From Paludibacteraceae bacterium (GTDB taxonomy: Bacteria; Bacteroidota; Bacteroidia; Bacteroidales; Paludibacteraceae): a stretch of DNA of 64,000 nt. The position numbers were made by a program, and so were the translations under genes. The stretch is taken from the NCBI GenBank assembly GCA_024399655.1, contig JAKSNP010000007.1, positions 43,552-107,551 of the forward strand. The letters are read 5' to 3'. This document shows, piece after piece, positions 6,239-63,738 of this stretch. The notes under the pieces were generated by a model. The model did not search any database and was not told the DNA's origin. It worked only from the letters and a program-made list of their open reading frames with translations. How positions within the stretch are numbered: the stretch's first letter is position 1; each line of letters starts with the position of its first letter.

Positions 6239-6642
6239 GAAAAAAAGGAAAAAACATTTTGTCACCCCCCAAAAGGGAATAATATATATGTTGGCAGTAG
6301 AAAAATGACAACATTCAGAATGGGCATAACAAGCATCATATATCAAACGAAAGCTGACTGACAGTCTGACAGGAAAAGGTATTCAACCATTCGGTGACGT
6401 TAGGTTTATCTTACGTTTATGTTACGTTTAGCTCTCGATAAAGGCACGACCGAAAAGATGTCATAAAAAAGAATACATTAAGACATACATAAAGACATAC
6501 ATAATACATAATACATATATAATATATTAGACATGCATATAAATATGTATATCGTTTCCTATAAATAACAGGCAGGTAGATGTTATAAAACAGAAACGAA
6601 AACACAAACGGCTGCGTAAAAAACACTTTTTTTGCAGAAATA
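6239..6642. other. Gene-free region between btuB and rpmH
   Basis: About 400 bp between divergent promoters with no convincing coding sequence. It holds an 11-bp triplet repeat at 6400-6432, a 40-bp sequence shared in inverted orientation with 46427-46466, a GACTGACAGTCTGACAG direct repeat near 6357-6374, and an AT-rich stretch (6475-6560) with a 12-bp repeat AAGACATACATA twice and further ATACATA copies. Confidence 0.7.
6400..6432 (+). repeat. Three tandem copies of an 11-bp unit (TTACGTTTATG family)
   Basis: Consecutive units TTAGGTTTATC, TTACGTTTATG and TTACGTTTAGC, each exactly 11 bp. The same family occurs inverted at 46438-46470. The array is intergenic and lies 210 bp upstream of the rpmH promoter. 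Confidence 0.85.
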
Positions 6643-6674
6643 TTTGGTCAATCCAAAAAAAAGCAGTACCTTTG
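6643..6674 (+). promoter_or_regulatory. rpmH promoter
   Basis: TTTG at 6643-6646, 20 bp, TACCTTTG at 6667-6674. The leader to the rpmH ATG is about 95 nt. Confidence 0.8.
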
Positions 6675-6776
6675 CACGCTTTTTCGTTTAACGGCTAACA
6701 CGAATTGGCAATATTACGAGTTAATAACCCCTAATGCCCGATAGCGATATCCGGCATACAAAAACCAAAAACAGAT

Positions 6777-6935
6777 ATGAAACGTACATTTCAACCCTCG
6801 CAACGCAAACGTCGCAACAAACACGGATTCCGTGAAAGAATGGCTACAGCAAACGGTCGTCGTGTATTGGCAGCCCGCCGCGCTCATGGTCGCAAGAAAC
6901 TGACTGTAGCTGACGAAAGACGCCACAAATATTAA
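6777..6935 (+). CDS. rpmH: 50S ribosomal protein L34
   Basis: 52 aa, beginning [18 protein letters not shown] and ending ADERRHKY. It is extremely basic, with the classic L34 core ([26 protein letters not shown]). It binds 23S rRNA in the large subunit. Length is normal for Bacteroidota, slightly longer than the 46-aa E. coli protein. It has its own promoter and terminator, so it is monocistronic. In many bacteria rpmH neighbours dnaA and oriC, but not here: the next genes are rbfA and a LolC/E permease. Confidence 0.97.
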
Positions 6936-6969
6936 TTCACCTAACCGTTGATTTAATACATAACTTATA

Positions 6970-7003
6970 GGGAAAAGAGATGCGTCTCCTTTCCCTTGTT
7001 TTG
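6970..7003 (+). terminator. Terminator after rpmH
   Basis: Stem GGGAAAAGAGA (6970-6980) pairs with TCTCCTTTCCC (6985-6995) around a TGCG loop with one A/C mismatch, followed by TTGTTTTG. Confidence 0.75.
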
Positions 7004-7065
7004 CATAAATGCAGTTGCCCCACATCAAAAACGGGGCGCAATAACGACCTAACAACCTAAAAGAA

Positions 7066-7401
7066 ATGGAAAACACACGACAACAAAAGATTGCCCGTCT
7101 GATTCAAAAAGACCTGAGTGACATATTACTGCGCTACAGCCGCAGCATGCAAGGAACGCTGATATCTGTCAGCGAAGTCAGGATATCTCCCGATTTGGCC
7201 ATTGCACATGTCTATTTGAGCGTATTTCCACAAGACAAAGTGGAATCCACGATGGCCAGGATAGAGGAAGACAGTCACAAAATCAGATTTGAGATGGGGA
7301 ATCTGGAACGCCATCAACTCAGAATTATCCCTGAACTTCACTTCCATTTGGACGAAACTATCGACAAGTTGGAACGCATAGACGAACTATTGAAACCATA
7401 A
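7066..7401 (+). CDS. rbfA: Ribosome-binding factor A
   Basis: 111 aa, the usual RbfA length. The single KH-like fold begins with TRQQKIARLIQKDLSDIL and contains the family block VSEVRISPDLAIAHVYLSVF. The C-terminus LHFHLDETIDKLERIDELL matches the conserved F..D.s...a.ri..ll helix. RbfA binds immature 30S subunits and helps 16S rRNA 5'-end maturation. The stop lies 3 bp before the GTG of the following permease, so the two are cotranscribed with xerD. No strong promoter was found immediately upstream; a stem GCCCC/GGGGC lies at about 7014-7038. Confidence 0.95.
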   Translation: MENTRQQKIARLIQKDLSDILLRYSRSMQGTLISVSEVRISPDLAIAHVYLSVFPQDKVESTMARIEEDSHKIRFEMGNLERHQLRIIPELHFHLDETIDKLERIDELLKP

Positions 7402-7404
7402 AGC

Positions 7405-8622
7405 GTGTATAGCCTGGAAGGACATATCGCATGGCGGTATTTACGCTCAAAAAAGAGCCACAATGCCATCAATATCGTATCCGGAGTGAGCGCAGTCGCT
7501 GTGGCGGTAGTGACCGCAGCGATGATTTGCGTATTGAGTGTAATGAACGGATTCGGCGATATAGTCCGGCAGATGTTTTCAGAATTCGATCCACAATTGC
7601 GTATTACGGCCGCACAAGGGAAGTACTTTTCAACCGATGACCCGCGTATTGCAGAAGTACAATCCTTACCCTATATAGACGTGTGGTGCGAGGCCGTAAA
7701 AGAAACCGCTCTGGTGGAATTCGAAAGCCATCAATTGCCGGCCGTCCTATTGGGAGTTGACAGCAACTATCAACAACTGACTCATATCGATTCCATTTTG
7801 GTGGATGGAGAATTTCAGACTTTTGACGGAGGATTCGAACGTACGGTAGTCGGTCAAGGACTAGCCTGGCAGTTGGGCGTTGGAGCGCATTTCATTCGCG
7901 GCCTGCATCTATATGCGCCCAAACGATGCGAAGAAGTGAATATGCTTCGCCCCGAACAGAATTTCAATCAATCTACCGTATTCATTTCCGCCATTTTCGC
8001 TGTCAATCAAGTGGAATATGATGATAAAATGATGTTAGTCAGTCTCCAAACGGCCCGACATCTTTTTGATTACAGCGATCAACAAGTTACGGAAATAGAT
8101 TTCAGTATTAAAGCAGGAACACAACTGCGCCATGCGAAACGAGAAATCCGCAAAATTCTGGGTGACAATTATGTTGTAGCCGACCAATATGAACAACAAG
8201 CCGATTTCTTTCGCATCCTGCGTGTGGAGAAACTGCTAACCGGTCTACTTCTCGTATTCATATTGTTGATAGCCGCCTTCAATTTGATCGGTTCGCTCAC
8301 CATGCTGATGCTGGATAAGCAGGAAGACACCCGCACTTTAAGCAATTTGGGTGCTGACGAAGCCATGATCAGAAGGATTTTTCTGTTGGAAGGTTGGATC
8401 ATATCAAGTATAGGCGCCGTTGCGGGTATTTTATTGGGATTAACGCTGTGTCTCATTCAGCAACATTTCGGTCTGCTCAAGTTGGGTTCCGGCACCGAAT
8501 ACATACTGAACGCCTACCCGGTAGCCGTCAGAGCCACGGATATATTGATTGTATTGATTATTGTAATAAGCATCGGTTTTGCCGCCGCATGGTATCCTAC
8601 ACGACATGTCAGATCTAAGTAA
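7405..8622 (+). CDS. LolC/LolE-family ABC transporter permease (FtsX-like)
   Basis: 405 aa from a GTG start 3 bp after rbfA. Topology is that of LolC/E: one N-terminal transmembrane helix (about 22-45, AVAVAVVTAAMICVLSV) followed by NGFGD, a large periplasmic MacB-like domain (about 50-265), then three C-terminal helices (about 275-300, 325-350, 375-398) within an FtsX domain. The family extracts lipoproteins from the inner membrane for transfer to the outer membrane. The partner ATPase is not in this window. In Bacteroidota a single permease of this type usually substitutes for the LolC/LolE pair. Its 3' end overlaps xerD by 17 bp. Confidence 0.88.
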   Translation: MYSLEGHIAWRYLRSKKSHNAINIVSGVSAVAVAVVTAAMICVLSVMNGFGDIVRQMFSEFDPQLRITAAQGKYFSTDDPRIAEVQSLPYIDVWCEAVKETALVEFESHQLPAVLLGVDSNYQQLTHIDSILVDGEFQTFDGGFERTVVGQGLAWQLGVGAHFIRGLHLYAPKRCEEVNMLRPEQNFNQSTVFISAIFAVNQVEYDDKMMLVSLQTARHLFDYSDQQVTEIDFSIKAGTQLRHAKREIRKILGDNYVVADQYEQQADFFRILRVEKLLTGLLLVFILLIAAFNLIGSLTMLMLDKQEDTRTLSNLGADEAMIRRIFLLEGWIISSIGAVAGILLGLTLCLIQQHFGLLKLGSGTEYILNAYPVAVRATDILIVLIIVISIGFAAAWYPTRHVRSK

Positions 8623-9490
8623 AGAATATCATATTTACTTGAAGCTGGAACGCGGATTGAGCGAAAATTCGGTAGAAGCTTACGAACAGGATATAAAGAA
8701 ATTATACGAATTTCGTAGCGATCCTGAAAAAATGCAATTCGAAGACCTACAGGATTTTTTGCATTATCAGTTTTCATCCGAAACCAATGTCCGTTCGCAA
8801 GCCCGCATCTTAAGCGGTATCAGATCTTTCTACAAATTTCTCATTTACCACCATTATCGAGAAGACGATCCCTCTGAACTATTGGAATGGCCCAAAAAGG
8901 AATTCCATATTCCTGAAGTGCTAACCGTTGAGGAAATCAATGCATTAGTGGACGCCATTGACCTCTCAAAGGCAGATGGACACCGCAACAGAGCCATCAT
9001 TGAAATGCTATACGGCAGCGGATTACGCGTAAGCGAACTGACGGAATTAAAATTGAGTTGCATGTATCGAAAGGAGGGGTATATGCTGATTCACGGCAAA
9101 GGGGATAAAGAAAGGCTAGTTCCCATATCTCCTGAAGCAGATGAATGGTTCGGATATTGGATGGAGGACCGTTCCCGATTGGATATCCATCCCGAGCACA
9201 AAGATATTGCCTTTCTGAACAGAAACGGCAAACAACTGACAAGGATGATGATATTCACCATTATCAAACGACTTGCCGCTAAAGCAGGAATTCAAAAAAC
9301 CATATCCCCCCACACCATACGCCATTCATTTGCCACTCATCTGCTTCAAAACGGAGCTGATTTGCGCATTATTCAACAACTTCTGGGACATGAAAATATA
9401 ACCACCACCGAGATATACACACACATTGATATTCAAGATTTGAAAGAGACAATTTTGAAATATCATCCGGTGAATCAAAAGAAATCATAA
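8606..9490 (+). CDS. xerD: XerC/XerD-type tyrosine site-specific recombinase
   Basis: 294 aa from the ATG at 8606; an earlier in-frame start at 8579 would extend deep into the permease gene. A SAM-like N-terminal core-binding domain (1-85) is followed by the catalytic domain. All active-site residues are visible: Arg141 (GSGLRVSEL), Lys165 (HGKGDKER), His236 and Arg239 (SPHTIRHSFATHLL), His262 (LLGHENITTTEIYTH) and nucleophile Tyr271. Length and gene position in a housekeeping operon fit the chromosome-dimer resolving XerD rather than a mobile-element integrase. No dif site was searched exhaustively. Confidence 0.93.
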   Translation: MSDLSKEYHIYLKLERGLSENSVEAYEQDIKKLYEFRSDPEKMQFEDLQDFLHYQFSSETNVRSQARILSGIRSFYKFLIYHHYREDDPSELLEWPKKEFHIPEVLTVEEINALVDAIDLSKADGHRNRAIIEMLYGSGLRVSELTELKLSCMYRKEGYMLIHGKGDKERLVPISPEADEWFGYWMEDRSRLDIHPEHKDIAFLNRNGKQLTRMMIFTIIKRLAAKAGIQKTISPHTIRHSFATHLLQNGADLRIIQQLLGHENITTTEIYTHIDIQDLKETILKYHPVNQKKS

Positions 9491-9514
9491 GAACATCCCC
9501 ATCGCATCAAGCGC

Positions 9515-11968
9515 ATGACCATAAAGAAAACACTCATATTATTTTGGTTTAGTTTCGTCAGCATATTGCTGTCGGGACAAACAACCACCATTGTGGGTGA
9601 AGTTTATGATGCAGAAACAGGTCAAGCGCTTGCGGATGTCAACTTAAGTATCCAGGGGACTCCGTACGGCAGCGCCAGTGATGATGAAGGTTTTTTTTAC
9701 ATCAAAGCGGATATAAACAAGAAAAGCACCCTGGTAGCAAGCGCCGTCGGCTATAAAACAGAACGCTTCCATATCACCCCAGGTGAGAGTCTGGCTATCG
9801 AAATAGCATTAACCGAGAAAACGACTAACCTGACCGATGTATTCGTGCTTCCGGGAAGCAATCCCGCACTTCCGCTTATGGAACGCGTAAGAGCGCATCG
9901 AAATGAAAACAACATCGCTTACTTCGGGAAAGAGGAGGCCGATACACAAACCGATGTATTAGTGAGCGATATCCAGGCCCGCCAATTGAAGAAACGAATT
10001 TGGCAAAGTTTAGAAAGCGGAATGGTATCAGAAGATGACTCGACATATCTTCTCCCCATCTATCATAGTAGTAAAAAAAACGGACAAACACAGATACAAT
10101 CGGCTATATGCGACGCAACCGGCTTCACATCATTATTGAGCGGCGTGGACGGAGCGCCTAATTTCTATCTCAATTCAATACCGTTATACGACCAATCGTT
10201 TGTTTCCCCCTTGGCATCCAATAGCAACAGTTTCTACAACTATTATCTGATTGACAGCATCCCCGCACCGATTGAGGACGATGGAATATTGAAAGAGGAT
10301 AGCAGTATGGCCCACCACGAAAGGAAGACGTATACTGTAGATTTCCGAAGCAGGAATCCTTATTATCCAACATTCAACGGGCGTATGCAAATTGATTCGC
10401 TCACATGCGCCATAATCTCCATTCATGCCGTCGTACCTCCACAAGTTTCCGCCAATTATCTAAGGAATGTAACGATAGACCAACAATTCACTTTAGAAGA
10501 CCAATTCCCGACCTTGACAGCTGCACATACCTCAATGTTATTGGATGCAGCTATTAAAGCCGACACTTCACGAACATTCCCTACCCTGCTGATTAACAGC
10601 TATGTAGAAGGCCGGAAGAACGAGCCTGATAGCCAAACGAAAGATGAATACACACACCATATCAGCGATGGAGACTCAACCGTAGCCGCGGTAAGCGAAC
10701 TTCCTTTGATACGCACCGCCAAGTTCCTGGCATATATCATCCAAACCGGTTATATACCGACAGGATCGTATATTGAAGTTGGAAAAGTGAATGAAATAAT
10801 ACGATTTACCCCACAAGAAGGTATGCGACTGGGCATTCCGTTGCGAACAAGCGAGAAATTATGGAAAAACGTGTGCCTAGAAGCCTATGCCGCATACGGA
10901 TTCAAAGACCACGGATGGAAAGGAAGCGGAATGATTCACATCAATCTGCCAACCCAACGACGCCATGTACTACACCTGAGATACACAGACGATTACACCT
11001 ATTCGGAGATTAATTATTTTAACGATTATTACCGTGAGAACGCCATGTGGTTCAAATCAATGGGTTTGACTACTGCTTTGACTCGCGGTATATACAATCT
11101 GCATGAATTGAGTTTCAATCATCAAGTCCGTCAACGGGAATTCCGTTTTTGGGCAGAAAACGATTGGAACGATATTTTGGAGCAGGACTTCTATATTTCG
11201 GTAGAACGTCGAGGCTACCAAGACCCGACAACCGAATACACACTCAGCAAATCATTCACTCATTCGGCAGTGGGTACCACCTTCCGATTAGGATTTGATG
11301 ATAGAAGAGTGGATATGTATTTCCGTCGTTTCCACACATACGGACGCCTACCGATACTGTATTTAGGCGCAGAAATAGGCAGCTACCGCACAGAGAAGAT
11401 ATCGACCTACGGCATGTACGGAAAATTGAATCTGATGTTGCGTCAAACGTTACCCTTAGGCATTATGGGAAAGTTGACCTACATTTTTGATGCAGGAATG
11501 ATTATTGGTAATGTTCCCTATCCACTACTCAACATTTTCAGCGGGAATCAATCATACGCATATGATCCCTACCGATTCACTTTGATGTATGATTATGAGT
11601 TTGCAGCCGACCGTTATATGCTATTACATACAGAATGGAACGGACGAGGTTGTCTTTTCAACCTCATTCCGGGAATACGGGCTCTGCGCTTACGAGAGCT
11701 TGTCACTTTCAAAATAGCTTGGGGAGGACTTCATGGAAGTCATTTCGATCTATTGGATACACCAGAAAAGAATATTACCACTATTGATCCTTCCTATATC
11801 GGCACACCCACTTTTCAGCCCTTAACCACCCCATATATTGAATTAGGATGCGGCATCGGGAATATTTTCAGGGTATGCGATTTACATGCAATCTGGCGTC
11901 TGACTCACCGAGACGAACCGGGAACTGCCAATTGGGGAATCCGCTTCCGCTTGATTATCGAGCAGTAA
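9515..11968 (+). CDS. DUF5686 outer-membrane protein with carboxypeptidase-regulatory-like domain
   Basis: 817 aa. Signal peptide (1-21, ending LLSGQ), then a CarboxypepD_reg-like beta-sandwich (about 23-105, VGEVYDAETGQALADVNLSIQGT..GSASDDEGFFYIKA..VGYKTERF). The DUF5686 region begins with LPLMERVRAHRNENN, and a long C-terminal beta-barrel finishes in FRLIIEQ. The family is widespread in Bacteroidota and its transport or structural role is unknown. It resembles a TonB receptor lacking a plug. It is 24 bp after xerD and ends 46 bp before the convergent sirtuin gene. Confidence 0.88.
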   Translation: MTIKKTLILFWFSFVSILLSGQTTTIVGEVYDAETGQALADVNLSIQGTPYGSASDDEGFFYIKADINKKSTLVASAVGYKTERFHITPGESLAIEIALTEKTTNLTDVFVLPGSNPALPLMERVRAHRNENNIAYFGKEEADTQTDVLVSDIQARQLKKRIWQSLESGMVSEDDSTYLLPIYHSSKKNGQTQIQSAICDATGFTSLLSGVDGAPNFYLNSIPLYDQSFVSPLASNSNSFYNYYLIDSIPAPIEDDGILKEDSSMAHHERKTYTVDFRSRNPYYPTFNGRMQIDSLTCAIISIHAVVPPQVSANYLRNVTIDQQFTLEDQFPTLTAAHTSMLLDAAIKADTSRTFPTLLINSYVEGRKNEPDSQTKDEYTHHISDGDSTVAAVSELPLIRTAKFLAYIIQTGYIPTGSYIEVGKVNEIIRFTPQEGMRLGIPLRTSEKLWKNVCLEAYAAYGFKDHGWKGSGMIHINLPTQRRHVLHLRYTDDYTYSEINYFNDYYRENAMWFKSMGLTTALTRGIYNLHELSFNHQVRQREFRFWAENDWNDILEQDFYISVERRGYQDPTTEYTLSKSFTHSAVGTTFRLGFDDRRVDMYFRRFHTYGRLPILYLGAEIGSYRTEKISTYGMYGKLNLMLRQTLPLGIMGKLTYIFDAGMIIGNVPYPLLNIFSGNQSYAYDPYRFTLMYDYEFAADRYMLLHTEWNGRGCLFNLIPGIRALRLRELVTFKIAWGGLHGSHFDLLDTPEKNITTIDPSYIGTPTFQPLTTPYIELGCGIGNIFRVCDLHAIWRLTHRDEPGTANWGIRFRLIIEQ

Positions 11969-12014
11969 AAATTGACGGACACACTCCACCACATCGCTCA
12001 AACCATCAATCCAG

Positions 12015-12719
12015 TCAATCTCCATATTGACGAATAAGCAAATCCACCACTTCAGGAACGCCTTGAGTGGCCGGCTTACGAACATGCTGCAACCTATCAC
12101 GATATGGTCCGAACTCCGGTAATCCGGGATCGACAAAATAGATAGGCGCATTCAAAGGTGCATAATGCAGCAGACTTGCTGCGGGATAGACATTGAGACT
12201 TGTACCGATAACAAGCAGGATATCAGCCTGTGAAGCGATATCACAAGCCTCTGAGAAGTAAGGAACACCTTCACCAAAGAAGACAATATATGGTCGTAAC
12301 AAACTTCCATCAGGATGGCGATCACCATAGTGCTGTTCCCAACCATCAAGAGACACGGTTGCCGTTTCGTTAATATCGGAACGCAATTTTGTAATTTCAC
12401 CATGCAGATGCGTTATGGCATGCGATCCGGCACGCTCATGCAAATCATCAATATTCTGCGTAATGATTCGGGTGTCTGGAAATGCCTGCTGCAAACGAGT
12501 AATAGCCAAATGAGCTTCGTTCGGTTTAGCATTGAGCGTATCTCGGCGACGAGCATTATAGAAATCAACACACAATCTCGGATTACGCAACCATGCCTCA
12601 TGAGTGCAAATATCTTCCACACGATATTTCTCCCAAAGGCCATCTGCATCACGGAAGGTACCCAAACCACTCTCAGCACTGATGCCGGCACCTGTAAATA
12701 CTACAATTCGTTTGTTCAT
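12015..12719 (-). CDS. cobB: Sir2-family NAD-dependent protein deacylase lacking the zinc cysteines
   Basis: 234 aa. NAD-binding GAGISAESGLGTFRD (10-24) and TQNIDDLHERAG (88-99) are intact, and the catalytic His106 sits in HLHGE. The class III pair Tyr54-x-x-Arg57 (FYNARRR), which in SIRT5 and CobB recognises negatively charged succinyl or malonyl groups, is present. The segment normally holding four zinc-binding cysteines (about 111-140, RSDINETATVSLDGWEQHYGDRHPDG) has none, so the zinc ribbon has degenerated. Such zinc-less CobB proteins occur in Bacteroidota. The gene is monocistronic with its own promoter, divergent from tsaB. Confidence 0.9.
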   Translation of the reverse strand: MNKRIVVFTGAGISAESGLGTFRDADGLWEKYRVEDICTHEAWLRNPRLCVDFYNARRRDTLNAKPNEAHLAITRLQQAFPDTRIITQNIDDLHERAGSHAITHLHGEITKLRSDINETATVSLDGWEQHYGDRHPDGSLLRPYIVFFGEGVPYFSEACDIASQADILLVIGTSLNVYPAASLLHYAPLNAPIYFVDPGLPEFGPYRDRLQHVRKPATQGVPEVVDLLIRQYGD

Positions 12720-12748
12720 ATCCTTGCCTATTTATTAATTACAAAACG

Positions 12749-12858: not shown

Positions 12859-12883
12859 CAGGCTAAATTGCGAATTATAAGAC

Positions 12884-22988: not shown

Positions 22989-23011
22989 ACTCTCGGTTAG
23001 GTCTCGAAAAA
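22989..23011 (-). repeat. 23-bp dispersed repeat, copy 1
   Basis: On the minus strand TTTTTCGAGACCTAACCGAG + AGT, following the nfeD stop. The only other copy seen, at 44915-44937, differs at one base and follows the psd gene in the same orientation. Both begin with a T tract next to a potential hairpin. Function unknown. Confidence 0.7.
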
Positions 23012-29977: not shown

Positions 29978-30292
29978 TTATTTTGTGTATCAGCAAAAGA
30001 AAACGGCACTCCGAATCAACTCTGCAGTATAAAACAGTCATAAAAAAGCGGAAGGAAAGGAAAACGAAAACCTTCTCAATCTTAAAAATCGTATATTTTT
30101 TCGATTTGGTGATCCTATACTGACCCTATACTAACCCTATACTGACGTTTCGGAGACGTCATCCGAGCAAAATCTTAAAAATCGTATATTTTTCATCCTT
30201 TTACCCGGGGAGGAGAATCAAAGTATAAAAAGAGAAAGAATGCGGATTCAAAAAAAGCAGGGATGCGATAAGTGATAATTTTTATAAAATTA
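29978..30292. other. Gene-free region between prmC and ribD, repeat-rich
   Basis: No coding sequence is convincing. It contains two copies of a 23-bp direct repeat (30078-30100, 30171-30193), an 11-bp triplet repeat between them (30111-30143) and an inverted repeat GACGT-7 nt-ACGTC (30144-30160). The rest is A-rich (for example 30195-30290). Confidence 0.7.
30078..30193 (+). repeat. Composite element: 23-bp direct repeats flanking an 11-bp triplet and a hairpin
   Basis: The 23-bp sequence beginning AATCTTAAAAATCGTATA is present twice without mismatch (30078-30100 and 30171-30193). Inside are three 11-bp units GATCCTATACT, GACCCTATACT and AACCCTATACT (30111-30143), followed directly by GACGT TTCGGAG ACGTC, an inverted repeat. 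The composite is 116 bp long, 100 bp upstream of the ribD promoter. Confidence 0.85.
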
Positions 30293-44914: not shown

Positions 44915-44937
44915 ACTCTCGATTAGGTCTCGAAAAA
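44915..44937 (-). repeat. 23-bp dispersed repeat, copy 2
   Basis: On the minus strand TTTTTCGAGACCTAATCGAG + AGT. It differs from the copy at 22989-23011 at one base. The copy follows a potential psd terminator hairpin (CTTGTTTT/AAAGACAAG region, about 44938-44962) and forms part of its T tract. Confidence 0.7.
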
Positions 44938-46188: not shown

Positions 46189-46549
46189 TTTATTTATAAA
46201 ATAAATACTATTTACCTGAATTTTATTCACAATCGGCCATCTGCCATACACGAACAGACAGGGTTGACCTGCGAATTTCCTGACGCGAAACCCGCTGTTG
46301 AAATATAATTCCGAATAGAAAAAAATCAGAAATCCGCATATCCGCCGGCAACCTATTTCCAGCACCTGCAATCACATTGTTTCCTCACCTTCCGCACTAT
46401 CTGACATACGTATTTTTCCCACCCTGCTTTATCGAGAGCTAAACGTAACATAAACGTAACATAAACGAAGGGTCACAAACCTTTGCACAGAGGCTGTCAA
46501 TCGCCCTCAATCGATATACGATGCCCGTTATTTTTTGCCACCAACAAAA
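46189..46549. other. Gene-free region between SRPBCC gene and a lipoprotein gene
   Basis: About 360 bp without a convincing gene. It contains the 11-bp triplet repeat and the 40-bp sequence shared with 6404-6443. The remainder (46189-46420) shows no repeat or recognised motif. Confidence 0.65.
46427..46470 (+). repeat. 40-bp dispersed sequence with three 11-bp units, inverted copy of the 6.4-kb element
   Basis: Positions 46427-46466 match the reverse complement of 6404-6443 with 39 of 40 identities (33 consecutive). Units of 11 bp are GCTAAACGTAA, CATAAACGTAA and CATAAACGAAG (46438-46470). The similarity stops abruptly on both sides. Confidence 0.88.
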
Positions 46550-55275: not shown

Positions 55276-55372
55276 CGAAAGCCATGCCCCGTTGCGGCAA
55301 CTGATTGAATTATTGAATTATTGACTGATTGATTTAACATATGACTTGACAGGCTATCAATCAACAATCACC

Positions 55373-55403
55373 AATAAACAATAAACAATAAACAATAAAC
55401 AAT
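55373..55403 (+). repeat. (AATAAAC)4 heptamer tandem repeat
   Basis: Four perfect AATAAAC units plus AAT at 55373-55403, between the U32 gene and the ssrA terminator. The preceding 55303-55335 is a low-complexity TTGAATT/ATTGACTG stretch similar to 63745-63774. Confidence 0.85.
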
Positions 55404-55406
55404 ATC

Positions 55407-55435: not shown

Positions 55436-55446
55436 GACTCTTAAGG

Positions 55447-55838
55447 GGTGGAGATAGCGGGATTCGAACCCGCGTCCAAACAGGGAACACATAAGCTTTC
55501 TACATGCTTATTTCGGCCTTCATTTTCGTCCGATAGCAAGACCCGAACCACCTACTACCGGCTTATCTGTTAAACTTTCATTGCTGCATCACAGCCTACA
55601 GCAACTAACTTCACCATTTCCGCGCCACTATATCCATTCAGCCGTGAAGTTTGGCTTGGAGTGACGTCTCGTCCCAACGCCTTGCATCGGGAAAAAGCGA
55701 TCCTACTATGCTTCAGATCAAGCAGCGAGAGCTACATTGTTGTTGCCAGTTATTGGTTTGGATAAGGATTAACGAGCGTTACCCGTGCTCGACATGCTTA
55801 CTTATCCATCCTGCCTGCTGTCAAAACCATCTATCCCC
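55447..55838 (-). ncRNA. ssrA: tmRNA (ssrA)
   Basis: About 392 nt. The tRNA-like acceptor stem pairs GGGGATA (55838-55832) with TATCTCC (55456-55450). The T arm carries GGTTCGAATCC next to the 3' end, and CCA is only partly encoded (ACC). The tag reading frame at 55747-55718 is GGC AAC AAC AAT GTA GCT CTC GCT GCT TGA, giving GNNNVALAA after the charged alanine. The ALAA end is the ClpXP-recognised degron type. It rescues stalled ribosomes. One-piece, not permuted. Promoter and terminator are both recognisable. Confidence 0.96.
55718..55747 (-). other. tmRNA proteolysis-tag reading frame (GNNNVALAA)
   Basis: The resume codon is GGC at 55747-55745 and the stop is TGA at 55720-55718. The nine-residue tag resembles the GENNYALAA type reported for Bacteroidales, with Asn-Asn-Val in place of Glu-Asn/Tyr positions. 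Confidence 0.8.
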
Positions 55839-56256: not shown

Positions 56257-59200
56257 TTATTTGATTATACTGCGGACAACGCGCTTGCCGGCGGGAGTGG
56301 TCACCTCGAAGAGAGCGACACCTTGCGGCAGAGCGAGCGTAGCGCTGGTGCTGTTGGGCGCGATATGGGCGATCACACGACCGGCCAGGTCGTAAGCCAC
56401 GATATCGGTCATCGAAAGATCGCAGAACAAGGTGGCGTGACCGGCATGCGAATTATATACATCCAGATTCCAGTCGGTGACATAGGTCTCCAGGGCTTTC
56501 TCATCGTCTTCCACTTCATCCAAAGCGGTGGGCACGGTAGGATCATCCGAAGAACCGCCTACGATATAATAACGCAATTCGTGGTTGTCGGGGCAATCCA
56601 GCTCGTAAGTGATACCGTCGTAGATTGGATAATAGAGGTCAGTTTGCTGGTCGTAGAGCCATACGTATTCGGGCCAATCCTTCGAGAGGTTGAAATAAAC
56701 CTTAATGGTAGGCGTAGCATAGGTGGCATCTATCATGAAGAGCAGCGGAACATGGTTGATCCATTCACGTACATCGGCAATCAGGGCCACATCTCCCGCC
56801 AGGGTGTAGACATTCATCGGCGTAGCCATCTGACTGATATCCACGTTGGGCGAATAGATGAACTTGGCGTCCTCTTCATCCACATAAGCGTCGTCGGCCA
56901 AACTGTTGAGGCAGAGGCGCATCGAGGAACCGCCGTTGTCATTGTACATATAGATATTCATTACATCGCTATGCAGGTAGCCTGTACGTACGCCGTTGTT
57001 GCGGCGCGGAGCCTGACTGGGATTGAGGGGCACGACGGGACGGTTCATATCCGTTTTCAATACCAGATGATTCTTGCGGAGCACCACGTCGAGTTCGGTG
57101 TCGGCTGCGGTAGCCTTAATCAAGGCGCTGCGCATCGGAGCGAGATAGCGGGTTTGGGGCTGATCGGCCGAAGCGGGAGTAGCACCCACCCATTCGCTTT
57201 CCTCAGCATAGTAGAAGGTGGTGGAAAGGCCGTTGTCCGTCAACATCTGTTGCATATCGATATAGGCCATAGTGGGGTTACCGAAGAGGAACCATTGGTC
57301 GGCTGTAGCGTTGGTGAGGTGGAAGGTCTGCGTGCTGTCCTGACCGGTGAAGGTAAGGGCCAGACGGTTGGAACCGGTACGGTCGATCGTTTCAGTCACC
57401 ACATCCGTCTCATCACCGTAGCGCGAATAGGTGTAGGCCGTTTCGGTTTTGGGCAGACGAACGTTCATCTGCAGGCGATTTTCAGCGGTTCCGTAACTAT
57501 AGTTGGGACCGTAGCTCAATACGGAGAATCCTTTACCGGGTGCGATGGATTCCACCATGCTGTTGGTGGGAGTCCATTGGCTGGCGCGGCCCAACGATTC
57601 GCTTACATTTCCGTCGACGCCTACCTGACCTACCGTCCGGTTGTAGTAAGAAGCCCAGAAGTGGTTGCCTGCAGCCGTACCACGTACGTAATCAAGCGGA
57701 GCGGCTTTGCATATATCATCATCTTCGTCCAAGGCTTGATACATATCGCCCGAATAGAAGGAGTTGAACGGCGTAGAAACGCCAATCCAATCGGCAGCGG
57801 GATAAGCGAGCACGGCGCTGGCATCCTGATAACTGAGATTCTCCTGACGCAGCATCTTGGCATAGCCTTCAAAGTGGATATGTTTGCATACATTCGGCTT
57901 GAAGTGGGCATCAATGCTCAGCAAATTGCCGGAGATATACGGATAAAGCGACTCTTCAGCCAGTTTGGGGATGATCACCACGGTGTGCTTCATCGGTACA
58001 TAACCGTGATCAAGCGTTTTGCCATTGACGATACAACGCCAGTTGTCGTCGTCCGACCAGTCGTTATACTCATTTCCCTTAGGTGACCATAGCATCGTAT
58101 CGGGCACCACGACAAGGGTGAAATAAGCCTCGCCGATAGGACAGAAATCTGGCAATTGCGCTTGGAAAGTAGTGGTCATCATATTGGTTTTGAACGTATA
58201 TTCATAACCCGGGCGCATCGTATCGGTATTGGCCACTTGCCATCCAGGATGACCATCTGTCCATACTATATGTCCATCTGTAGCAGCAGCATTGTCTTCA
58301 TCATGACGCTGTATATTGGCGTCCACACGAGCAGCATCCACGGGACGGAACACTATACTGTCACCCGGCTGATAATAGGCGGCTGCGCTGGCATCCTGAT
58401 AGATACGGTCCTGATAATAACGGAGAGATACGGTACTTCCCTGTTCCATCTTCTTCTTGAGCACCGGATCTGTGGTAGCGAACAGACGGGTTGAGTCGTA
58501 ACCGAGCACTACGTTTTGGATATCGGATACGGGCACTTTCAACATACGGTTGGCATCGTAAGCCGACGCACGTACAGCCGGAATTTGCGAACGTTGCTCT
58601 TCCGTCATTGATTCCAACGGTACTGTACTGAGATTGAGAATATATTGTGATTCCGGAGTATGGAAAGCCACGAAAATAGGTTCGTCACAAACCAGAAGAG
58701 AATCTCCATCCTCGCTTATACCGGTGTTGGGGATAGGATATACCCATGTGTACAAATCCTGACCGGCGCCCATATAGAATTTCTGTTCAGAAGCATTCAA
58801 CAGAAGGAGATTATTATTGACTAAGTACATTATCACATCGTAATAATCCTCATTGTTGAAACCTTCGCGCACCAACAGGTTGGCATTGCTTACTTCTCTA
58901 TTGGGGTTGTGGGCTTTGGAGGTCTGGTCGGTTTCGCTATCGGCGCGGCGCAAATCCGTCAAAGCCGAACGAACCACAGTACGACTATAATGATAGTAGG
59001 CTTCAAATTCCGAATCTGCCTGACTCCGCTGAGCATCAGTAGCGGCAGGAGTTAAACCTTCCAAATATACATTATCCGATGCAATACCTATCAGCCAATC
59101 TGCCGAGCATGTTCCTTTGGTCACTTCTCCTTCAATATCCAGGTTGCTCACATCCATACTCAAACCGACTACACCATTCGCACATTGGTTATTCTCATTA

Positions 59201-62200
59201 TCGGGCAGAGCCTCGCCTTCAAACTTAATACCGGTCTGCTTGGATACGTTCAACTGAGTGGTCATAGCACATTCTGCATGGTCCAAATCTTTAGCTTCGG
59301 AAGCCATACGTATCAAATATATATTGGAAGCGCTCATACCGCCAAGCGTATGAACAAGATAAAGTATCCAGTGGTCCTGACCGCCTACGGTCTCCTTTAC
59401 AAAACCTTTGAGCGGGCGCGAGTAATCGCCATTGGCATATTCTGTTTGCAGGAGAGATATGAACTCGCTGGCACTTTCATAAACCATTTCCGGATTTGAT
59501 ACCGACGGATTATAAGTCTTGGCAGGAATGTTCAGTTTACCATAAGTTAGCGTTTCGTCAGAAGTGCTCGGCTCGTAGAAATATCCTCCGCTGGGAGACA
59601 GTTTGGTAGCGCGTGTAGCATTGTACAAGTCATAATAGAGCGACTTGCCGGCCCAACGTTCCTCATCCAAACTCATATAGTCAAGACGAATAACGGAAAT
59701 GATAGAGTCAGTAGCCTTACAGGAGGTGCTGACCTGATAACTGGTCAATGCAAGACGGCTGGCATACAAGCGGAACTCATCCACCATAAAATCGTTAGAT
59801 TGACTACTTTCTGCAAAGTTGTAGAGCGACACACGCACCTGGTTGTAGTCCTTGGCACTCTCCAAGGGGAAACGCACCTGTTGCCAGCCGGAGGCCTTTG
59901 CCAATTTACCAACCATGAATACACCTACGTCTTCCCAATCCTCGTTATCGGCATTACGGCCCTGCACGTTGAAACGGAAAATAGGGTCAGCGCCAGAATA
60001 GTTGGATGGACATACGTTATTAATCCATGCCGAGCAATACATCAATTGGCCGGAGCAGATTTTGGTTTTGGCATCGATGCTGACCACCATACCGGGCTCC
60101 ATCATACCGTCCACATACAATGAATAGTCGTTAGCCTTACCTCCGTAACTCTCTCCCTTAGCAAAATCCTCATTTATAGCATTCACCAAAACATACTGAC
60201 CATAGTATGGAAAATCACTTGATGTTCCGGTTTGGTAACGTCCGGGATAACCATTTACCCAATGTTGGTCATAATAGTGCCCGTAGGATGCATCTTCCCA
60301 GGCCAGATGTACAGGAGCGAATTGCCGATGATAGGATGTAGGCTTATACCCGTAGTTGAAATCGTTGTACGACATGCTGATATAATCCCGCTCAATATCC
60401 TGCGCGGTAACCAAAGCATCGGTTGACGGACCGCATTCAGCGGGATCAATTACAGTAACATTGAAACGCGCCAGATTAATCTCCGTACTACCATCCACAT
60501 AGCGCAAATAATAGGTGCTTTTACCTTTTTGGTGTCTATGGATAGTCAACAGGTCGGAAATAATATAAGACGGACCTATCTGTTCATCATCACGCCACCA
60601 TTGTACCTTGTTGCCATCTATTTTAGTAAGTTGATGACTCTGATTCCAATAGTAGTAGCATTTCTCCGATTCATCCTGATAGGTATTTTTATAACGGAAA
60701 TTCGTTTCCAGATACACATCCCTGCCATAAGGAATCACATAGTTGTGCTCTTCGTAATAATTGCCGGTTTTGCGACCTCCGGTGCATTTTGTCAATGAGT
60801 CAGCTATTACGGATGCCGGAATACAATGATACACCAAACGATATTGCAATGTGGGTTCTTTCACCGTAGTGCTATTATCCGTATAGTCGGTACAGTCACT
60901 CATATCGCAAGCGATAATATGAGTCTGGCCGTCATTCCATGCGTCAATCGAGCGAGGATAGACCTCGCCTTTATGGGTGGCATACAAACCGAAATGAGCA
61001 TCCGTCAAACCTCCGTAATCACGCCATTTGAATCCGGCCGGATCTGTATTGTATTCAGGATTGAGATTAGTTTCGTAATCATACCAACGGACATAAGCCG
61101 GGAAGGTCTGCCCCGGAACAAGCAGCCTCAACACTTCTCCGGGTGTATAGTAAACCGTTTTGTGGTATTCATGCACTTTCTGACGTCCTTGAGCATCCAG
61201 GCTGACATCACCTTTACCGATATTGGGAACGAACTTTTGGCCGTATTCTCCGGACGGTGATGTTTGGGTTACCCATGCTTGGCATATGCCGCTACTATAG
61301 GTTTTGCCGTTTACAGTATAGGAAAAAGAAGAATTCAGACGGGCGCTCCTACTCAGGTTACCGCCATTAACAGTAGTTGTCAACGTCAGCGTGTTGCCGG
61401 ACAGATTGGTACCTGTGCCGCTGGGGGAAACAGTCAACCAAGTTGGCTGTACACCATTGTCATTATCAAGGGGCGAGATGGTGTATTGTATATTATTGTT
61501 CGGATCGGTTAGATCAATCTCCTCAGCTGATGGCAAACGGTTAATCTCAAAATTTTCCTTCAGACCGCTGGTAGCGAAATAGAAAAGACGGGCATCTTTC
61601 AATTTCATTGAAATATTCATCGTTTTGGTTCCACCGGCTGCAGTAAATACAAATGTAGAGGGAGACATCTGCACATCCAACCCCTCGACATCTTCATATA
61701 CGATGGCCAATCGTTTGGCCTCACAAGTGGCAGTCACAGGTTTACTGTTGACGGTTGCTGTGGCCACTATGCGGTCTACATAGTCACTCACTCCACCCAC
61801 CGAGCGCTCAGCCAAGGGACTATTGCCATTAGGAGTAAGTGTAAACTGCCATACGTTACGTCCTTCCACTTGTGCGATCTGAGGCGTGCTCATAGTCATC
61901 ATCGCCGTACCATTGTCAGACGAAACCGTGGACAATCCATTGCTTTCCCAAGAGAAGGTAGGGATAATACCTTGATTATAGAGCACCTGAGCATCCGTTT
62001 CCGTATCATCATCTGAGGAGCTGCTGCCACTGGTGTAGATTCGGGTAGTAGTATTCGATTTGTTGTAATAATACTCAGACGGAGAACTGGTAGAATAAGA
62101 GAGCAGACAGTTGACGGTTTGAGCCGGAGTACTTACATTCAAGGCATCATTCTGGAAACCGAAGGAATATGCCGACAATTCAAAAGACATGGCCAAACCC

Positions 62201-62823
62201 TTTACCTGACTTTCAGCCTTATGTTCTCCCCAAACTTGAATGCGCAAGTTTCCACTTATATTATATATATCAGTGTTAGCTGCATGAGAATTTTGATAAA
62301 TAAAAGAAGCATTATCTTTATTCCAATGCAGATAATACGTGGCATCAGATCCACCACTGCGTTTACCATTGTATTGCAATTCTACAAATTTCAGATACTC
62401 ATTTTGAGATGAAGCCGAATAATTAGTAAACGACAAAACGTTTATTCCTTGAGGAGATGTTGACATTGTCAGCGTACATCCGTCATACTGACCCGGCACA
62501 AAATAAAGATATTTCTGCAAACCTAAGTTTTTTAATTGAACCTGGCCATTAACTATCTTATATTCCCATAATGCATAAACAGAAGGAGTACTCAATGTCA
62601 CAATATTTCCTTTGGCATCAACAGCCATATAGTGTGTTGTTGACAACTCCCTCAAAACATTTTTTTGCTGACTTTGGCTCCACTCTACTGTGGTCTCTAC
62701 AGACTGTATTGTCACAATCGAGCCGCTGGGGATGTCAGTAACTTTCACATTTGTACCTGTAGCTGCGAAGGCAGACACACACGTGCACGCGAAAAAAAAT
62801 AAAACAAAAAATATCTTTTTCAT
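56257..62823 (-). CDS. Giant secreted T9SS cargo protein (type A sorting domain)
   Basis: 2188 aa from the ATG at 62823, chosen because it opens a clear signal peptide MKKIFFVLFFFACTCVSAFA; upstream codons to 62874 are open but lack one. The length is mostly beta-rich, with aromatic and Thr/Ser/Asn-rich blocks. A region near residues 900-1050 (VRVSLYNFAESSQSNDFMVDEFRLYAS) resembles a jelly-roll or carbohydrate-binding sandwich, but no catalytic motif was found. The last ~70 residues match the T9SS type A C-terminal domain (MTDIVAYDLAGRVIAHI, LPQGVALFEVTTPAGKRVVRSIIK), which directs export and surface attachment. It starts 40 bp downstream of the small PVGD protein and probably shares its transcript. 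Confidence 0.85.
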   Translation of the reverse strand: MKKIFFVLFFFACTCVSAFAATGTNVKVTDIPSGSIVTIQSVETTVEWSQSQQKNVLRELSTTHYMAVDAKGNIVTLSTPSVYALWEYKIVNGQVQLKNLGLQKYLYFVPGQYDGCTLTMSTSPQGINVLSFTNYSASSQNEYLKFVELQYNGKRSGGSDATYYLHWNKDNASFIYQNSHAANTDIYNISGNLRIQVWGEHKAESQVKGLAMSFELSAYSFGFQNDALNVSTPAQTVNCLLSYSTSSPSEYYYNKSNTTTRIYTSGSSSSDDDTETDAQVLYNQGIIPTFSWESNGLSTVSSDNGTAMMTMSTPQIAQVEGRNVWQFTLTPNGNSPLAERSVGGVSDYVDRIVATATVNSKPVTATCEAKRLAIVYEDVEGLDVQMSPSTFVFTAAGGTKTMNISMKLKDARLFYFATSGLKENFEINRLPSAEEIDLTDPNNNIQYTISPLDNDNGVQPTWLTVSPSGTGTNLSGNTLTLTTTVNGGNLSRSARLNSSFSYTVNGKTYSSGICQAWVTQTSPSGEYGQKFVPNIGKGDVSLDAQGRQKVHEYHKTVYYTPGEVLRLLVPGQTFPAYVRWYDYETNLNPEYNTDPAGFKWRDYGGLTDAHFGLYATHKGEVYPRSIDAWNDGQTHIIACDMSDCTDYTDNSTTVKEPTLQYRLVYHCIPASVIADSLTKCTGGRKTGNYYEEHNYVIPYGRDVYLETNFRYKNTYQDESEKCYYYWNQSHQLTKIDGNKVQWWRDDEQIGPSYIISDLLTIHRHQKGKSTYYLRYVDGSTEINLARFNVTVIDPAECGPSTDALVTAQDIERDYISMSYNDFNYGYKPTSYHRQFAPVHLAWEDASYGHYYDQHWVNGYPGRYQTGTSSDFPYYGQYVLVNAINEDFAKGESYGGKANDYSLYVDGMMEPGMVVSIDAKTKICSGQLMYCSAWINNVCPSNYSGADPIFRFNVQGRNADNEDWEDVGVFMVGKLAKASGWQQVRFPLESAKDYNQVRVSLYNFAESSQSNDFMVDEFRLYASRLALTSYQVSTSCKATDSIISVIRLDYMSLDEERWAGKSLYYDLYNATRATKLSPSGGYFYEPSTSDETLTYGKLNIPAKTYNPSVSNPEMVYESASEFISLLQTEYANGDYSRPLKGFVKETVGGQDHWILYLVHTLGGMSASNIYLIRMASEAKDLDHAECAMTTQLNVSKQTGIKFEGEALPDNENNQCANGVVGLSMDVSNLDIEGEVTKGTCSADWLIGIASDNVYLEGLTPAATDAQRSQADSEFEAYYHYSRTVVRSALTDLRRADSETDQTSKAHNPNREVSNANLLVREGFNNEDYYDVIMYLVNNNLLLLNASEQKFYMGAGQDLYTWVYPIPNTGISEDGDSLLVCDEPIFVAFHTPESQYILNLSTVPLESMTEEQRSQIPAVRASAYDANRMLKVPVSDIQNVVLGYDSTRLFATTDPVLKKKMEQGSTVSLRYYQDRIYQDASAAAYYQPGDSIVFRPVDAARVDANIQRHDEDNAAATDGHIVWTDGHPGWQVANTDTMRPGYEYTFKTNMMTTTFQAQLPDFCPIGEAYFTLVVVPDTMLWSPKGNEYNDWSDDDNWRCIVNGKTLDHGYVPMKHTVVIIPKLAEESLYPYISGNLLSIDAHFKPNVCKHIHFEGYAKMLRQENLSYQDASAVLAYPAADWIGVSTPFNSFYSGDMYQALDEDDDICKAAPLDYVRGTAAGNHFWASYYNRTVGQVGVDGNVSESLGRASQWTPTNSMVESIAPGKGFSVLSYGPNYSYGTAENRLQMNVRLPKTETAYTYSRYGDETDVVTETIDRTGSNRLALTFTGQDSTQTFHLTNATADQWFLFGNPTMAYIDMQQMLTDNGLSTTFYYAEESEWVGATPASADQPQTRYLAPMRSALIKATAADTELDVVLRKNHLVLKTDMNRPVVPLNPSQAPRRNNGVRTGYLHSDVMNIYMYNDNGGSSMRLCLNSLADDAYVDEEDAKFIYSPNVDISQMATPMNVYTLAGDVALIADVREWINHVPLLFMIDATYATPTIKVYFNLSKDWPEYVWLYDQQTDLYYPIYDGITYELDCPDNHELRYYIVGGSSDDPTVPTALDEVEDDEKALETYVTDWNLDVYNSHAGHATLFCDLSMTDIVAYDLAGRVIAHIAPNSTSATLALPQGVALFEVTTPAGKRVVRSIIK

Positions 62824-62863
62824 ATTAGTTTGTATATTCATAGAATAAAAAAGAAAAGGGATT

Positions 62864-63406
62864 TTATTTCTCAATCGAAGATTGATGACGTTTGCGCCAT
62901 TTCACTACTACATAAAGCATCGACATCAACAGAAGCGGCAATACGGCATCGCCTACAGGCAATACACCGATTTCGTTGCCGAGACCCGGATTGTTAGGAT
63001 CGATAATGATGATATGATTGGGACCATTGGGACCGCCTTGCTCGGCATCGAACGACTTGCCCGAGGTCTGATCATCAAACACATCGTTCATGATATGCCA
63101 GGCATCCAGCGAGCCACGAGCTGCAAACACCCCGTTTCGAGGCTGCAACTCATCGTGGATGGAGTAAGCGCTTACCGACCCTCCATCCGAGGAAAGCCAA
63201 TCGTTGTTTGACTGGTCGTAATCCCACCCCGAAGAAAGAGGGGCGGCGGACAGACCGTTAGAAGATCCGAACGGATCGCTGGCTATGCTGCCGAACGGCG
63301 TTTCACTTCCCCACTCCGAAATAGAAGAAGAAGTATACACACCGGCAAATACTACACCAATATGGCATAGCATCAGCATAACACCGAGTACTATTTTCTT
63401 ATACAT
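62864..63406 (-). CDS. Small secreted protein with PVGD-transmembrane-KWRKR tail (putative sorting signal)
   Basis: 180 aa. Signal peptide (1-21, ending VVFAG), then a low-complexity Ser/Gly/Asp-rich mature part (TSSSISEWGSETPFGSIASDPFGSSNG) with a middle block NGVFAARGSLDAWHIMNDVF. The C-terminus has a Pro-Val-Gly-Asp motif (about 150-153), a 20-residue hydrophobic helix and a basic end WRKRHQSSIEK. This tripartite arrangement resembles exosortase/rhombosortase-type or Bacteroidota PID-CTERM-like sorting signals, but the family is not firmly identified. It is located directly upstream of the giant T9SS cargo; shared function is inferred from that. Confidence 0.7.
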   Translation of the reverse strand: MYKKIVLGVMLMLCHIGVVFAGVYTSSSISEWGSETPFGSIASDPFGSSNGLSAAPLSSGWDYDQSNNDWLSSDGGSVSAYSIHDELQPRNGVFAARGSLDAWHIMNDVFDDQTSGKSFDAEQGGPNGPNHIIIIDPNNPGLGNEIGVLPVGDAVLPLLLMSMLYVVVKWRKRHQSSIEK

Positions 63407-63660
63407 ATTCTACAACACGCTATCGAAATCACTTGGATTTCAGATACTTAATTAAGTTAGTCGTCAGATAGACGCTTTCCGACCCATAGGGAGTCCTTCG
63501 CCTACAAACGACAAATTACGGAATTATATTTGCAAAAACCATGCTAAAAATCGCAATTATCAATAAAGAAAGATAATTTATGCATAAAAAACGATATTTT
63601 TACACAAACAAGCTGCATTTTTAGCATTTTTTAACTCGATCACACAATACGAGATTAGCC
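63407..63660 (-). promoter_or_regulatory. Structured leader and candidate promoter of the PVGD-giant operon
   Basis: A weak promoter, TTTG (63536-63533), 20 bp, GTCGTTTG (63512-63505), would give a ~90-nt leader. Within it the minus strand can fold GAAATC/GATTTC (63425-63441), the palindrome ACTTAATTAAGT (63446-63457), CGTC/GACG (63462-63474) and a bulged GACCC/GGGAGTC hairpin (63481-63495). No known riboswitch motif was recognised. The part from 63540 to 63660 is AT-rich without features. Confidence 0.45.
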
Positions 63661-63693
63661 GAGAGTCTCCCGACACTCTCCCGACAGTCTCAC
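63661..63693 (+). repeat. Three tandem copies of an 11-bp unit (GACAGTCTCCC family)
   Basis: Units GAGAGTCTCCC, GACACTCTCCC and GACAGTCTCAC, each 11 bp (63661-63671, 63672-63682, 63683-63693). GC-rich in an otherwise AT-rich intergenic region. Confidence 0.85.
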
Positions 63694-63705
63694 CCACCCC
63701 GCCAG

Positions 63706-63738
63706 CCGTATACGATCCGTATACTGTCCGTATAGGAT
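63706..63738 (+). repeat. Three tandem copies of an 11-bp unit (CCGTATACTGT family)
   Basis: Units CCGTATACGAT, CCGTATACTGT and CCGTATAGGAT at 63706-63716, 63717-63727 and 63728-63738. It is 12 bp downstream of another 11-bp triplet with a different unit, and resembles the 30111 family (CCTATACT core). Confidence 0.85.

What the first reader, a model, noticed from the sequence alone, without database searches (positions are those of the whole stretch)
6400..63738. Recurring intergenic 11-bp x 3 tandem arrays with a different unit at nearly every site
Seen in sequence: five intergenic positions (6400-6432, 30111-30143, 46438-46470, 63661-63693, 63706-63738) each hold exactly three consecutive units of exactly 11 bp, about one helical turn. 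The unit is nearly identical only between 6400 and 46438; elsewhere it differs (TTACGTTTATG, GACCCTATACT, GACAGTCTCCC, CCGTATACTGT), with a loose shared CCTATACT/CCGTATACT core at 30111 and 63706. All are outside genes. Equal copy number and equal period with different sequence is not what a fixed transcription-factor site gives, nor ordinary slippage, which would vary copy number. It may mark a process that builds helical-phase arrays, or a fast-evolving DNA-binding family (PhoB/OmpR-type regulators use 11-bp direct repeats).
Basis: seen in the sequence. Interest (0 to 1): 0.72.

Follow-up and report, generated by a model that had tools for sequence, protein, structure and literature searches.

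The report
Dispersed triple 11-bp repeat elements
A genus of uncultured bacteria carries scattered short DNA elements built of about three 11-letter repeats, usually between genes but sometimes inside linkers of essential proteins, and the repeat sequence changes between families and species while the 11-letter spacing stays, which looks like a little-known kind of very small mobile DNA.

Summary
All five arrays are real, non-coding and part of a period-11 excess: in a 0.85-Mb sample of the host genome 40 arrays reach 80% (period 10: 9; 12: 2; 13: 0), and 39 of 40 arrays found with at least three units have just three. 802 kb of other Bacteroidota has none. Units are not different at every site: they form a few dispersed families. 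The family at 6400 and 46438 has 31 places here and none in 30 relatives; another (GACYGTCGGTT) is in 80 of 178 genomes of the genus and 0 of 180 of 32 other genera of the family. One leader (TGACGTYAGCCTT) precedes different units in different species, in register. Arrays mostly lie between genes without promoter preference, but some sit in frame in linkers of isoleucyl-tRNA synthetase and an ABC-F ATPase, in all three frames, with different units at one site; a sister genus keeps a 15-aa linker (26 of 26 parsed). This fits small non-autonomous mobile or dispersed repeats (works like BrickBuilt or RPE, is neither), not a PhoB-type site. No mobilising enzyme, clean empty site or target duplication was found, so mobility is inferred.

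The parts
6391..6443 (+).
   Evidence: the end motif (2 mismatches allowed) has 31 places in the own genome and 0 in 30 relatives; weaker similarity over about 200 bp in many copies
46427..46476 (-).
30110..30146 (+). Family B array (CCTATACTGAC x3) in the divergent region between a prmC-like methyltransferase gene and ribD
   Evidence: a 17-mer of this family (3 mismatches allowed) has 25 partly overlapping hits in the own genome against 9 for the reversed control
30078..30196 (+). Stretch with two direct copies of AATCTTAAAAATCGTATATTTTT, one on each side of the family B array
   Evidence: a motif of it has 10 copies in the genome sample and 0 in the reversed control
63659..63693 (+). Family C-like array (CCGACASTCTC x3)
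63702..63738 (+). Family B array (CCGTATACNGT x3) just after the C-like array; a C-like and a B array lie close together elsewhere too (L037, L038, L045, L046)
22989..23007 (+). Two-unit relative of the family A end (ACTCTCGGTTAGGTCTCGA), 11-bp frame
44915..44933 (+). Two-unit relative of the family A end (ACTCTCGATTAGGTCTCGA), 11-bp frame

Best explanation
The arrays are copies of very small, non-autonomous dispersed elements of one Bacteroidales genus: a short leader, about three 11-bp units and a short tail, roughly 45-65 bp (family A has weaker similarity over about 200 bp). Shown: specific period and, in this genome, copy number; dispersal in many copies; restriction of family C to the genus among the genomes searched; one leader with different units; presence scattered over the IleRS tree at a permissive in-frame linker. 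Inferred: they are copied or moved by a trans-acting DNA-binding protein that reads units one helical turn apart, so spacing and number are held while unit sequence drifts together with the protein, giving parallel families; copies survive where they do no harm, that is between genes and in linkers. In families C and A one strand has no stop codon in any frame, and since 11 is not a multiple of 3 every frame reads the same peptide repeat, which would help survival inside genes; families B and D have stops on both strands, so this is not general. No host function is needed.
For: Period and copy number. Dispersal: 31 family A places in the own genome; up to 18 partly overlapping family C hits per genome. 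Genus restriction: 80 of 178 genomes of the genus (own genome included, which lacks this variant), 0 of 180 in 32 other genera of the family, reversed-pattern control 0 of 358; 0 period-11 arrays in 101 kb of one sister genus against 26 in 338 kb of this genus; 0 in 802 kb of other Bacteroidota. Unit swap behind one leader: of 28 places of TGACGTYAGCCTT, 13 (9 genomes) continue in register with GACYGTCGGTT-like units, 2 (G002, G004) with ATSTTATGCTT units and 13 with unrelated sequence; G000 has TGACGTTAGGTTT then ATGTTACGTTT. Permissive sites: in the IleRS linker 12 of 31 parsed species hold an 11-bp array (15 of 22 or better) with at least five unit sequences, two of the 31 having been chosen because they had one; a further, unparsed locus (G062) has about six units. 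On the tree family C needs 5 changes (at least 4 forced by well-supported branches) and other units 7 (at least 4). All three frames occur at IleRS and at ABC-F, judged by eye. Sister-genus linker 15 aa in 26 of 26 parsed of 30.
Against: No clean empty-versus-filled orthologous site and no target duplication was seen (the nine ribD-locus arrays had no spanning homologue, and the IleRS and ABC-F comparisons differ over much of the linker). No mobilising gene was identified or searched for. No inverted ends shared by the two family A copies of the window. The IleRS linker also holds period 7, 8 and 9 repeats in other species (by eye), so it may be a general tandem-repeat sink. ABC-F tree support is weak: only 2 changes are forced, and some ABC-F copies look inherited (G034, G046, G053; G002, G004). 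Copy number varies in relatives, and two species of the genus (G014, G017) show little or no period-11 excess.
Confidence: 0.55

Rival explanations
1. Local tandem duplication with a bias to 11 bp, in a genus prone to tandem repeats at unconstrained sites; spread of a unit between sites by occasional recombination or template switching, without a dedicated enzyme.
For: Periods 7 and 8 are also above the shuffle and period-7 arrays are often inside predicted genes in relatives (43 of 95); the IleRS linker holds several periods; unit number or letters change between close species; G045 has a one-unit remnant where its relative G100 has three units.
Against: Period-11 copy number peaks at 3-3.5 in this genome while periods 8, 9, 10 and 12 are commonest at 2-2.5; unit differences by position and leaders recur across copies; periods 12 and 13 are not enriched and period 10 only slightly.
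Confidence: 0.27
2. Binding sites of a nucleoid or regulatory protein family whose specificity evolves fast, with the protein touching the same face of the helix in each unit.
For: One-turn spacing, three units, conserved core with diverged flanks in some family A copies; family C orientation bias: the tail side faces the 3' end of the neighbouring gene in 29 of 40 placed arrays against 43% expected.
Against: No promoter preference; 8 of 34 arrays outside genes in G000 and 9 of 44 in relatives with both neighbours called lie between convergent genes; in-frame copies inside IleRS, ABC-F and other genes; most searched genomes of the genus lack the family A leader pattern (145 of 151) and more than half lack the family C pattern (98 of 178).
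Confidence: 0.13
3. RNA-level elements (terminators, attenuators or Rho loading sites) at gene ends.
For: 8 of 9 sites of the CTTATGTTATG family begin between 12 bp before and 24 bp after a called gene end; mild folding tendency of family C, mean z -1.75 over 80 folds of 40 elements against mononucleotide shuffles.
Against: Of the window stretches folded, 6380-6450 and 30100-30160 fold no better than shuffles on either strand; only 46430-46490 + (z -2.0, other strand not folded) and 63650-63745 + (z -2.4) do. Arrays also occur between divergent genes and inside open reading frames.
Confidence: 0.05

Closest known systems
BrickBuilt MITE of Porphyromonas gingivalis (Klein 2015, PMC4596501; 12 passages seen, part of the abstract among them)
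   Same: Same order of bacteria; dispersed copies made of a leader, a tandem minisatellite and a tail.
   Different: 23-nt unit, varying copy number, terminal inverted repeats, always intergenic, one family; here 11 bp, mostly three units, no inverted ends seen, several families, sometimes in frame inside genes.
Rickettsia palindromic elements (via review PMC10969869; passages seen)
   Same: Short repeats spread through a genome and inserted in frame in unrelated genes.
   Different: About 150 bp and palindromic; here about 45-65 bp of direct repeats.
REPs and REPINs with RAYT transposases (PMC3116915; 12 passages seen)
   Same: Miniature dispersed elements, several sequence families per genome, proposed co-evolution with a trans-acting enzyme.
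   Different: Palindromic and extragenic by definition; no RAYT link was tested here.
Tandem heptamers (STRR) and very small mobile repeats of cyanobacteria (Elhai 2008 seen only as a reference; not held; content recalled)
   Same: Intergenic tandem arrays with fixed period and varied sequence beside tiny mobile repeats.
   Different: Period 7 and unrelated organisms.
PhoB/OmpR-type 11-bp direct repeats (recalled; one search was a listing only)
   Same: Unit length and head-to-tail order.
   Different: Regulator sites lie in promoters and keep one sequence.

Membership tests
BrickBuilt-type MITE with minisatellite | Leader, tandem repeat, tail; dispersed copies | tested here: met
BrickBuilt-type MITE with minisatellite | Terminal inverted repeats | tested here: inconclusive
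   inverted-repeat search on the two window copies of family A found no pair common to both; none seen by eye in the consensus of 71 family C or 19 family A copies, but exact ends are unknown
BrickBuilt-type MITE with minisatellite | Strictly intergenic | tested here: not met
   in-frame copies in IleRS and ABC-F, although 87 of 91 arrays in the unselected stretches are outside predicted genes
Rickettsia palindromic element | In-frame insertion in unrelated coding genes | tested here: met
   (family C and some other units); insertion itself is inferred, no empty site seen
Rickettsia palindromic element | Palindromic element of about 150 bp | tested here: not met
   direct repeats of about 45-65 bp; families A and B show little hairpin excess, family C a mild one
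REPIN/RAYT | Inverted REP pair | tested here: not met
   units are head to tail
REPIN/RAYT | RAYT transposase in the genome | not tested
PhoB/OmpR-type binding site | Two or more 11-bp direct repeats | tested here: met
PhoB/OmpR-type binding site | Location upstream of regulated genes | tested here: not met
PhoB/OmpR-type binding site | Unit conserved for one regulator across relatives | tested here: inconclusive
   the family C core GACYGTCG is shared by many genomes of the genus; the family A end motif was found in one species only, its leader pattern in 6 of 151

The most novel reading that the evidence does not exclude
A new class of very small mobile DNA whose recognition unit is a triple of helically phased 11-bp direct repeats, in which the unit sequence is replaced in concert behind a conserved leader, so that parallel element families and their unseen mobilisers diverge while the geometry stays fixed; one-strand stop-free, frame-indifferent repeats let some families enter essential genes.
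Probability: 0.3. Interest if true: 0.8.

Novelty: new variant of a known kind. Interest (0 to 1): 0.62.

Why it matters
It would show that bacterial miniature mobile DNA can be organised as direct helical-turn repeats rather than palindromes, and it gives a natural series in which element sequence changes while geometry does not, a direct way to look for a co-evolving recognition protein. It also shows essential enzymes such as isoleucyl-tRNA synthetase carrying repeat-derived peptides at one loop in many species of a genus.

Tried and rejected
Rfam scan of the window found only tmRNA and a cobalamin riboswitch, nothing at the arrays. Viral contigs: no exact family C 22-mer; 15 scattered exact hits of a 16-mer of family A, taken as chance and not inspected. 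A test for preference for 3' gene ends over all arrays gave no clear signal (the 60-aa ORF caller there put 29 of 99 arrays inside called ORFs, many of them doubtful). Family C context: one search listed 80 strand-wise runs, of which some are the two strands of one array; recounted as 66 distinct arrays (one search had used the 80 runs and gave 32 of 46). One search used wrong genome totals (189 and 169 instead of 178 and 180) for one test, not quoted here. Rho loading (YC every 11 nt) was considered and dropped because family A units lack YC on the sense strand considered. Position conservation at ribD: 3 of 30 loci (own included) have an array at 18 of 22 or better upstream of ribD, two more at 15-16 of 22, which is not more than array density suggests (rough estimate, no test); that the upstream gene is prmC was checked only in the window. 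Clean empty sites were sought and not found. A wide spacing of family A copies was noticed but not tested. The fold of L416 used wrong coordinates and says nothing about the array. Literature searches without a description of this: (listings only).

Full report
Observation. The five arrays were read directly and measured. Each has three 11-bp units that agree at 7-10 of 11 positions, and each lies outside the genes predicted. 6400 and 46438 are the same element in opposite orientation and share more than the array. In the window, period 11 gives these five plus one AT-rich array, while periods 10, 13 and 15-20 give none and period 7 gives 24.

Genome scale. The window lies in contig C12 of a 1,408,189-base, 14-contig assembly rated 75% complete. 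I sampled 40 stretches plus the window, 846,904 bases. At 80% over three copies the counts for periods 7 to 14 are 20, 21, 5, 9, 40, 2, 0, 8; one Markov shuffle gives 4, 5, 0, 0, 0, 0, 0, 0; 77 loci of other Bacteroidota (802 kb) give 44, 12, 2, 0, 0, 2, 0, 8. Of the 40 period-11 arrays at 18 of 22 matches, 39 are outside predicted genes and 39 have 3.0 copies, the scan requiring at least three. Counting from two copies upwards in intergenic DNA, period 11 peaks at 3-3.5 copies (31 of 46 arrays), while periods 8, 9 and 12 are commonest at two copies and period 10 at 2-2.5; period 13 has four arrays only. In relatives the period-11 copy number is broader, 2 to 13.5 units.

Families, not singletons. 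Listing the arrays shows recurring units: A, TTTATGTTACG with end TTTAGSTCTCGATAAAG; B, CCKTATACTGA; C, GACTGTCGGTC and a variant with GTCTC; D, AACCCTTCTCT. A 23-bp pattern of A (2 mismatches) has 31 places in this genome and none in 30 relatives, 18 of them of the genus. Of 19 aligned A copies most show weaker similarity over about 200 bp, and some share the core only. C-like and B arrays recur close together, as at 63659-63738.

Relatives. The nearest named genomes by RibD are two Paludibacteraceae MAGs from horse faeces and a Bacteroidales MAG, UBA1735 (56-60% identity), so the genus is probably an uncultured member of Paludibacteraceae (inference). One of these (L177) carries a tandem array of GTCGGTCGACT units. 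Samples of six species of the genus gave period-11 counts at 75% of 3 (G017, 220 kb), 18 (G011, 180 kb), 12 (G052, 100 kb), 12 (G002, 180 kb), 2 (G014, 120 kb) and 6 (G005, 63 kb); G017 and G014 therefore show little or no excess. Units differ between species, for example TTATTTGGTGA in G011 and AAGGGTAACGC in G052.

A shared element. Family C is widespread: with 3 mismatches allowed 65 of 151 genomes of the genus have it, control 1 genome; a stricter pattern is in 80 of 178 and in 0 of 180 genomes of 32 other genera of the family, control 0 of 358 (genus totals counted from its table). Its consensus over 71 copies is TGACGTTAGCCTT, GACTGTCGGTT, GACCGTCGGTT, GACCGTCG, GGATTG, with weak conservation in the tail; 48 of 71 have three units, 15 four; an independent count of 66 distinct arrays gives 42 and 16. 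The leader TGACGTYAGCCTT alone has 28 places in 22 of 151 genomes: 13 (9 genomes) are followed in register by family C units, 2 (G002, G004) by ATSTTATGCTT units, and 13 by sequence without the array that looks like coding chance matches. In G000 the corresponding sequence is TGACGTTAGGTTT followed by ATGTTACGTTT. So the leader is kept while the unit is replaced, keeping the 11-bp register. A pattern for leader plus A-like unit occurs in 6 of 151 genomes, 22 hits in G000 and 8 in the others together, all reversed controls 0.

Close pair. G002 and G004 are about 80-95% identical over the compared loci. At three orthologous sites they differ in unit number or unit letters, for instance 3 against 4 units. 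Of nine loci of this family, eight have a called gene ending between 12 bp inside and 24 bp before the array; the ninth (L270) has a close stop codon by eye only.

Inside genes. Several family C runs from relatives lie inside open frames (23 of 66 distinct arrays are inside genes as called, some of these calls doubtful): IleRS, ABC-F ATPase, 2-oxoacid-ferredoxin oxidoreductase, an M16 peptidase and an aroA-glycosyltransferase junction (names by resemblance of the translated sequence, not by a family search). These loci were found by searching for the array, so they say nothing about how common this is; in the unselected stretches 87 of 91 arrays are outside genes. The IleRS linker between YANVD and EIDRW was compared in 31 species: 29 parsed of the 30 best-scoring loci out of 60 genomes with a match, plus two loci chosen because they carry the array; the query itself carried the array. 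Length runs from 12 to 30 residues. Twelve of 31 (10 of the 29 not chosen) have an 11-bp array at 15 of 22 or better, with units such as CCGACGGTCAA, ACCGAGAGATG, ATCGGAAGCTC, ACGACTCGAAA and a GACACGGACTC-like one, and the unparsed G062 locus has about six family C units. Others hold period 7, 8 or 9 repeats, by eye. G000 itself has a 15-residue linker without array. In the sister genus g30 the linker is 15 residues in 26 of 26 parsed of 30 loci, best period-11 score 9 of 22. On the IleRS tree family C needs 5 changes (at least 4 forced) and other 11-bp arrays 7 (at least 4), no fewer than with shuffled labels; the bootstrap had not settled. In ABC-F 10 of 26 parsed loci have family C (8 of 24 not chosen); 8 changes are needed but only 2 are forced because support is weak. 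Judged by the leader, the element is read in all three frames at both sites (by eye). The strand found as sense in these genes has no stop in any frame in the family C repeat; the other strand has one in each 33 bases.

Position and orientation. Among arrays outside genes, the orientation types of the neighbouring genes are about as expected from intergenic DNA; no promoter bias. Family C arrays face the 3' end of the neighbouring gene with their tail in 29 of 40 placed cases against 43% expected (p 0.0003), 17 against 4 in tandem contexts; 23 of 66 were left out as inside called genes and 3 for lack of a right-hand gene. This fits either a stop-free orientation in or near genes or a role at gene ends.

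Reading. The data fit small dispersed elements that keep geometry and change sequence, surviving at harmless sites. A general tandem-repeat tendency of the genus (periods 7 and 8) is real and may supply part of the process. What moves or copies them is not known: no clean empty site or target duplication was found, and no enzyme was searched for. A regulator-site explanation is disfavoured by location. Papers seen here in passages describe close analogues; no account of such arrays appeared in the searches listed under Tried and rejected.

Noticed in passing
window 6045-6214 (-) and 3911-6046 (-): Cobalamin riboswitch (Rfam RF00174) directly upstream of a TonB-dependent receptor gene; the 6400 array lies about 190 bp upstream of it.
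   Followed up: no
window 55446-55838 (-): tmRNA gene.
   Followed up: no
window 30080 and 30173: AATCTTAAAAATCGTATATTTTT occurs as direct copies on both sides of the family B array; a motif of it has 10 copies in the genome sample and 0 in the reversed control, and similar sequence stands near several family D arrays (by eye).
   Followed up: partly
window 55304-55404, 63745-63822, 63908-63932: Period 7 and 8 tandem repeats, two of them (GTTAAGT and ACACTTA) inverted relative to each other; in sampled relatives 43 of 95 period-7 arrays lie inside predicted genes.
   Followed up: partly
IleRS linker in species of the genus, e.g. L390, L409, L386, L397: The linker turns over between related species and fills with repeats of period 7, 8, 9 or 11, in frame (periods other than 11 by eye).
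   Followed up: partly
L258, L259, L265-L267, L270, L272, L273, L277 (G002, G004): Arrays of CTTATGTTATG begin at or close to a stop codon, in two or three cases apparently supplying it.
   Followed up: partly
own genome, family A places: Neighbouring family A places on a contig are never closer than about 10 kb; not tested against chance.
   Followed up: no
window 56257-62778 (-): A 2173-residue open frame with only a sub-threshold BACON-like match in Pfam.
   Followed up: no
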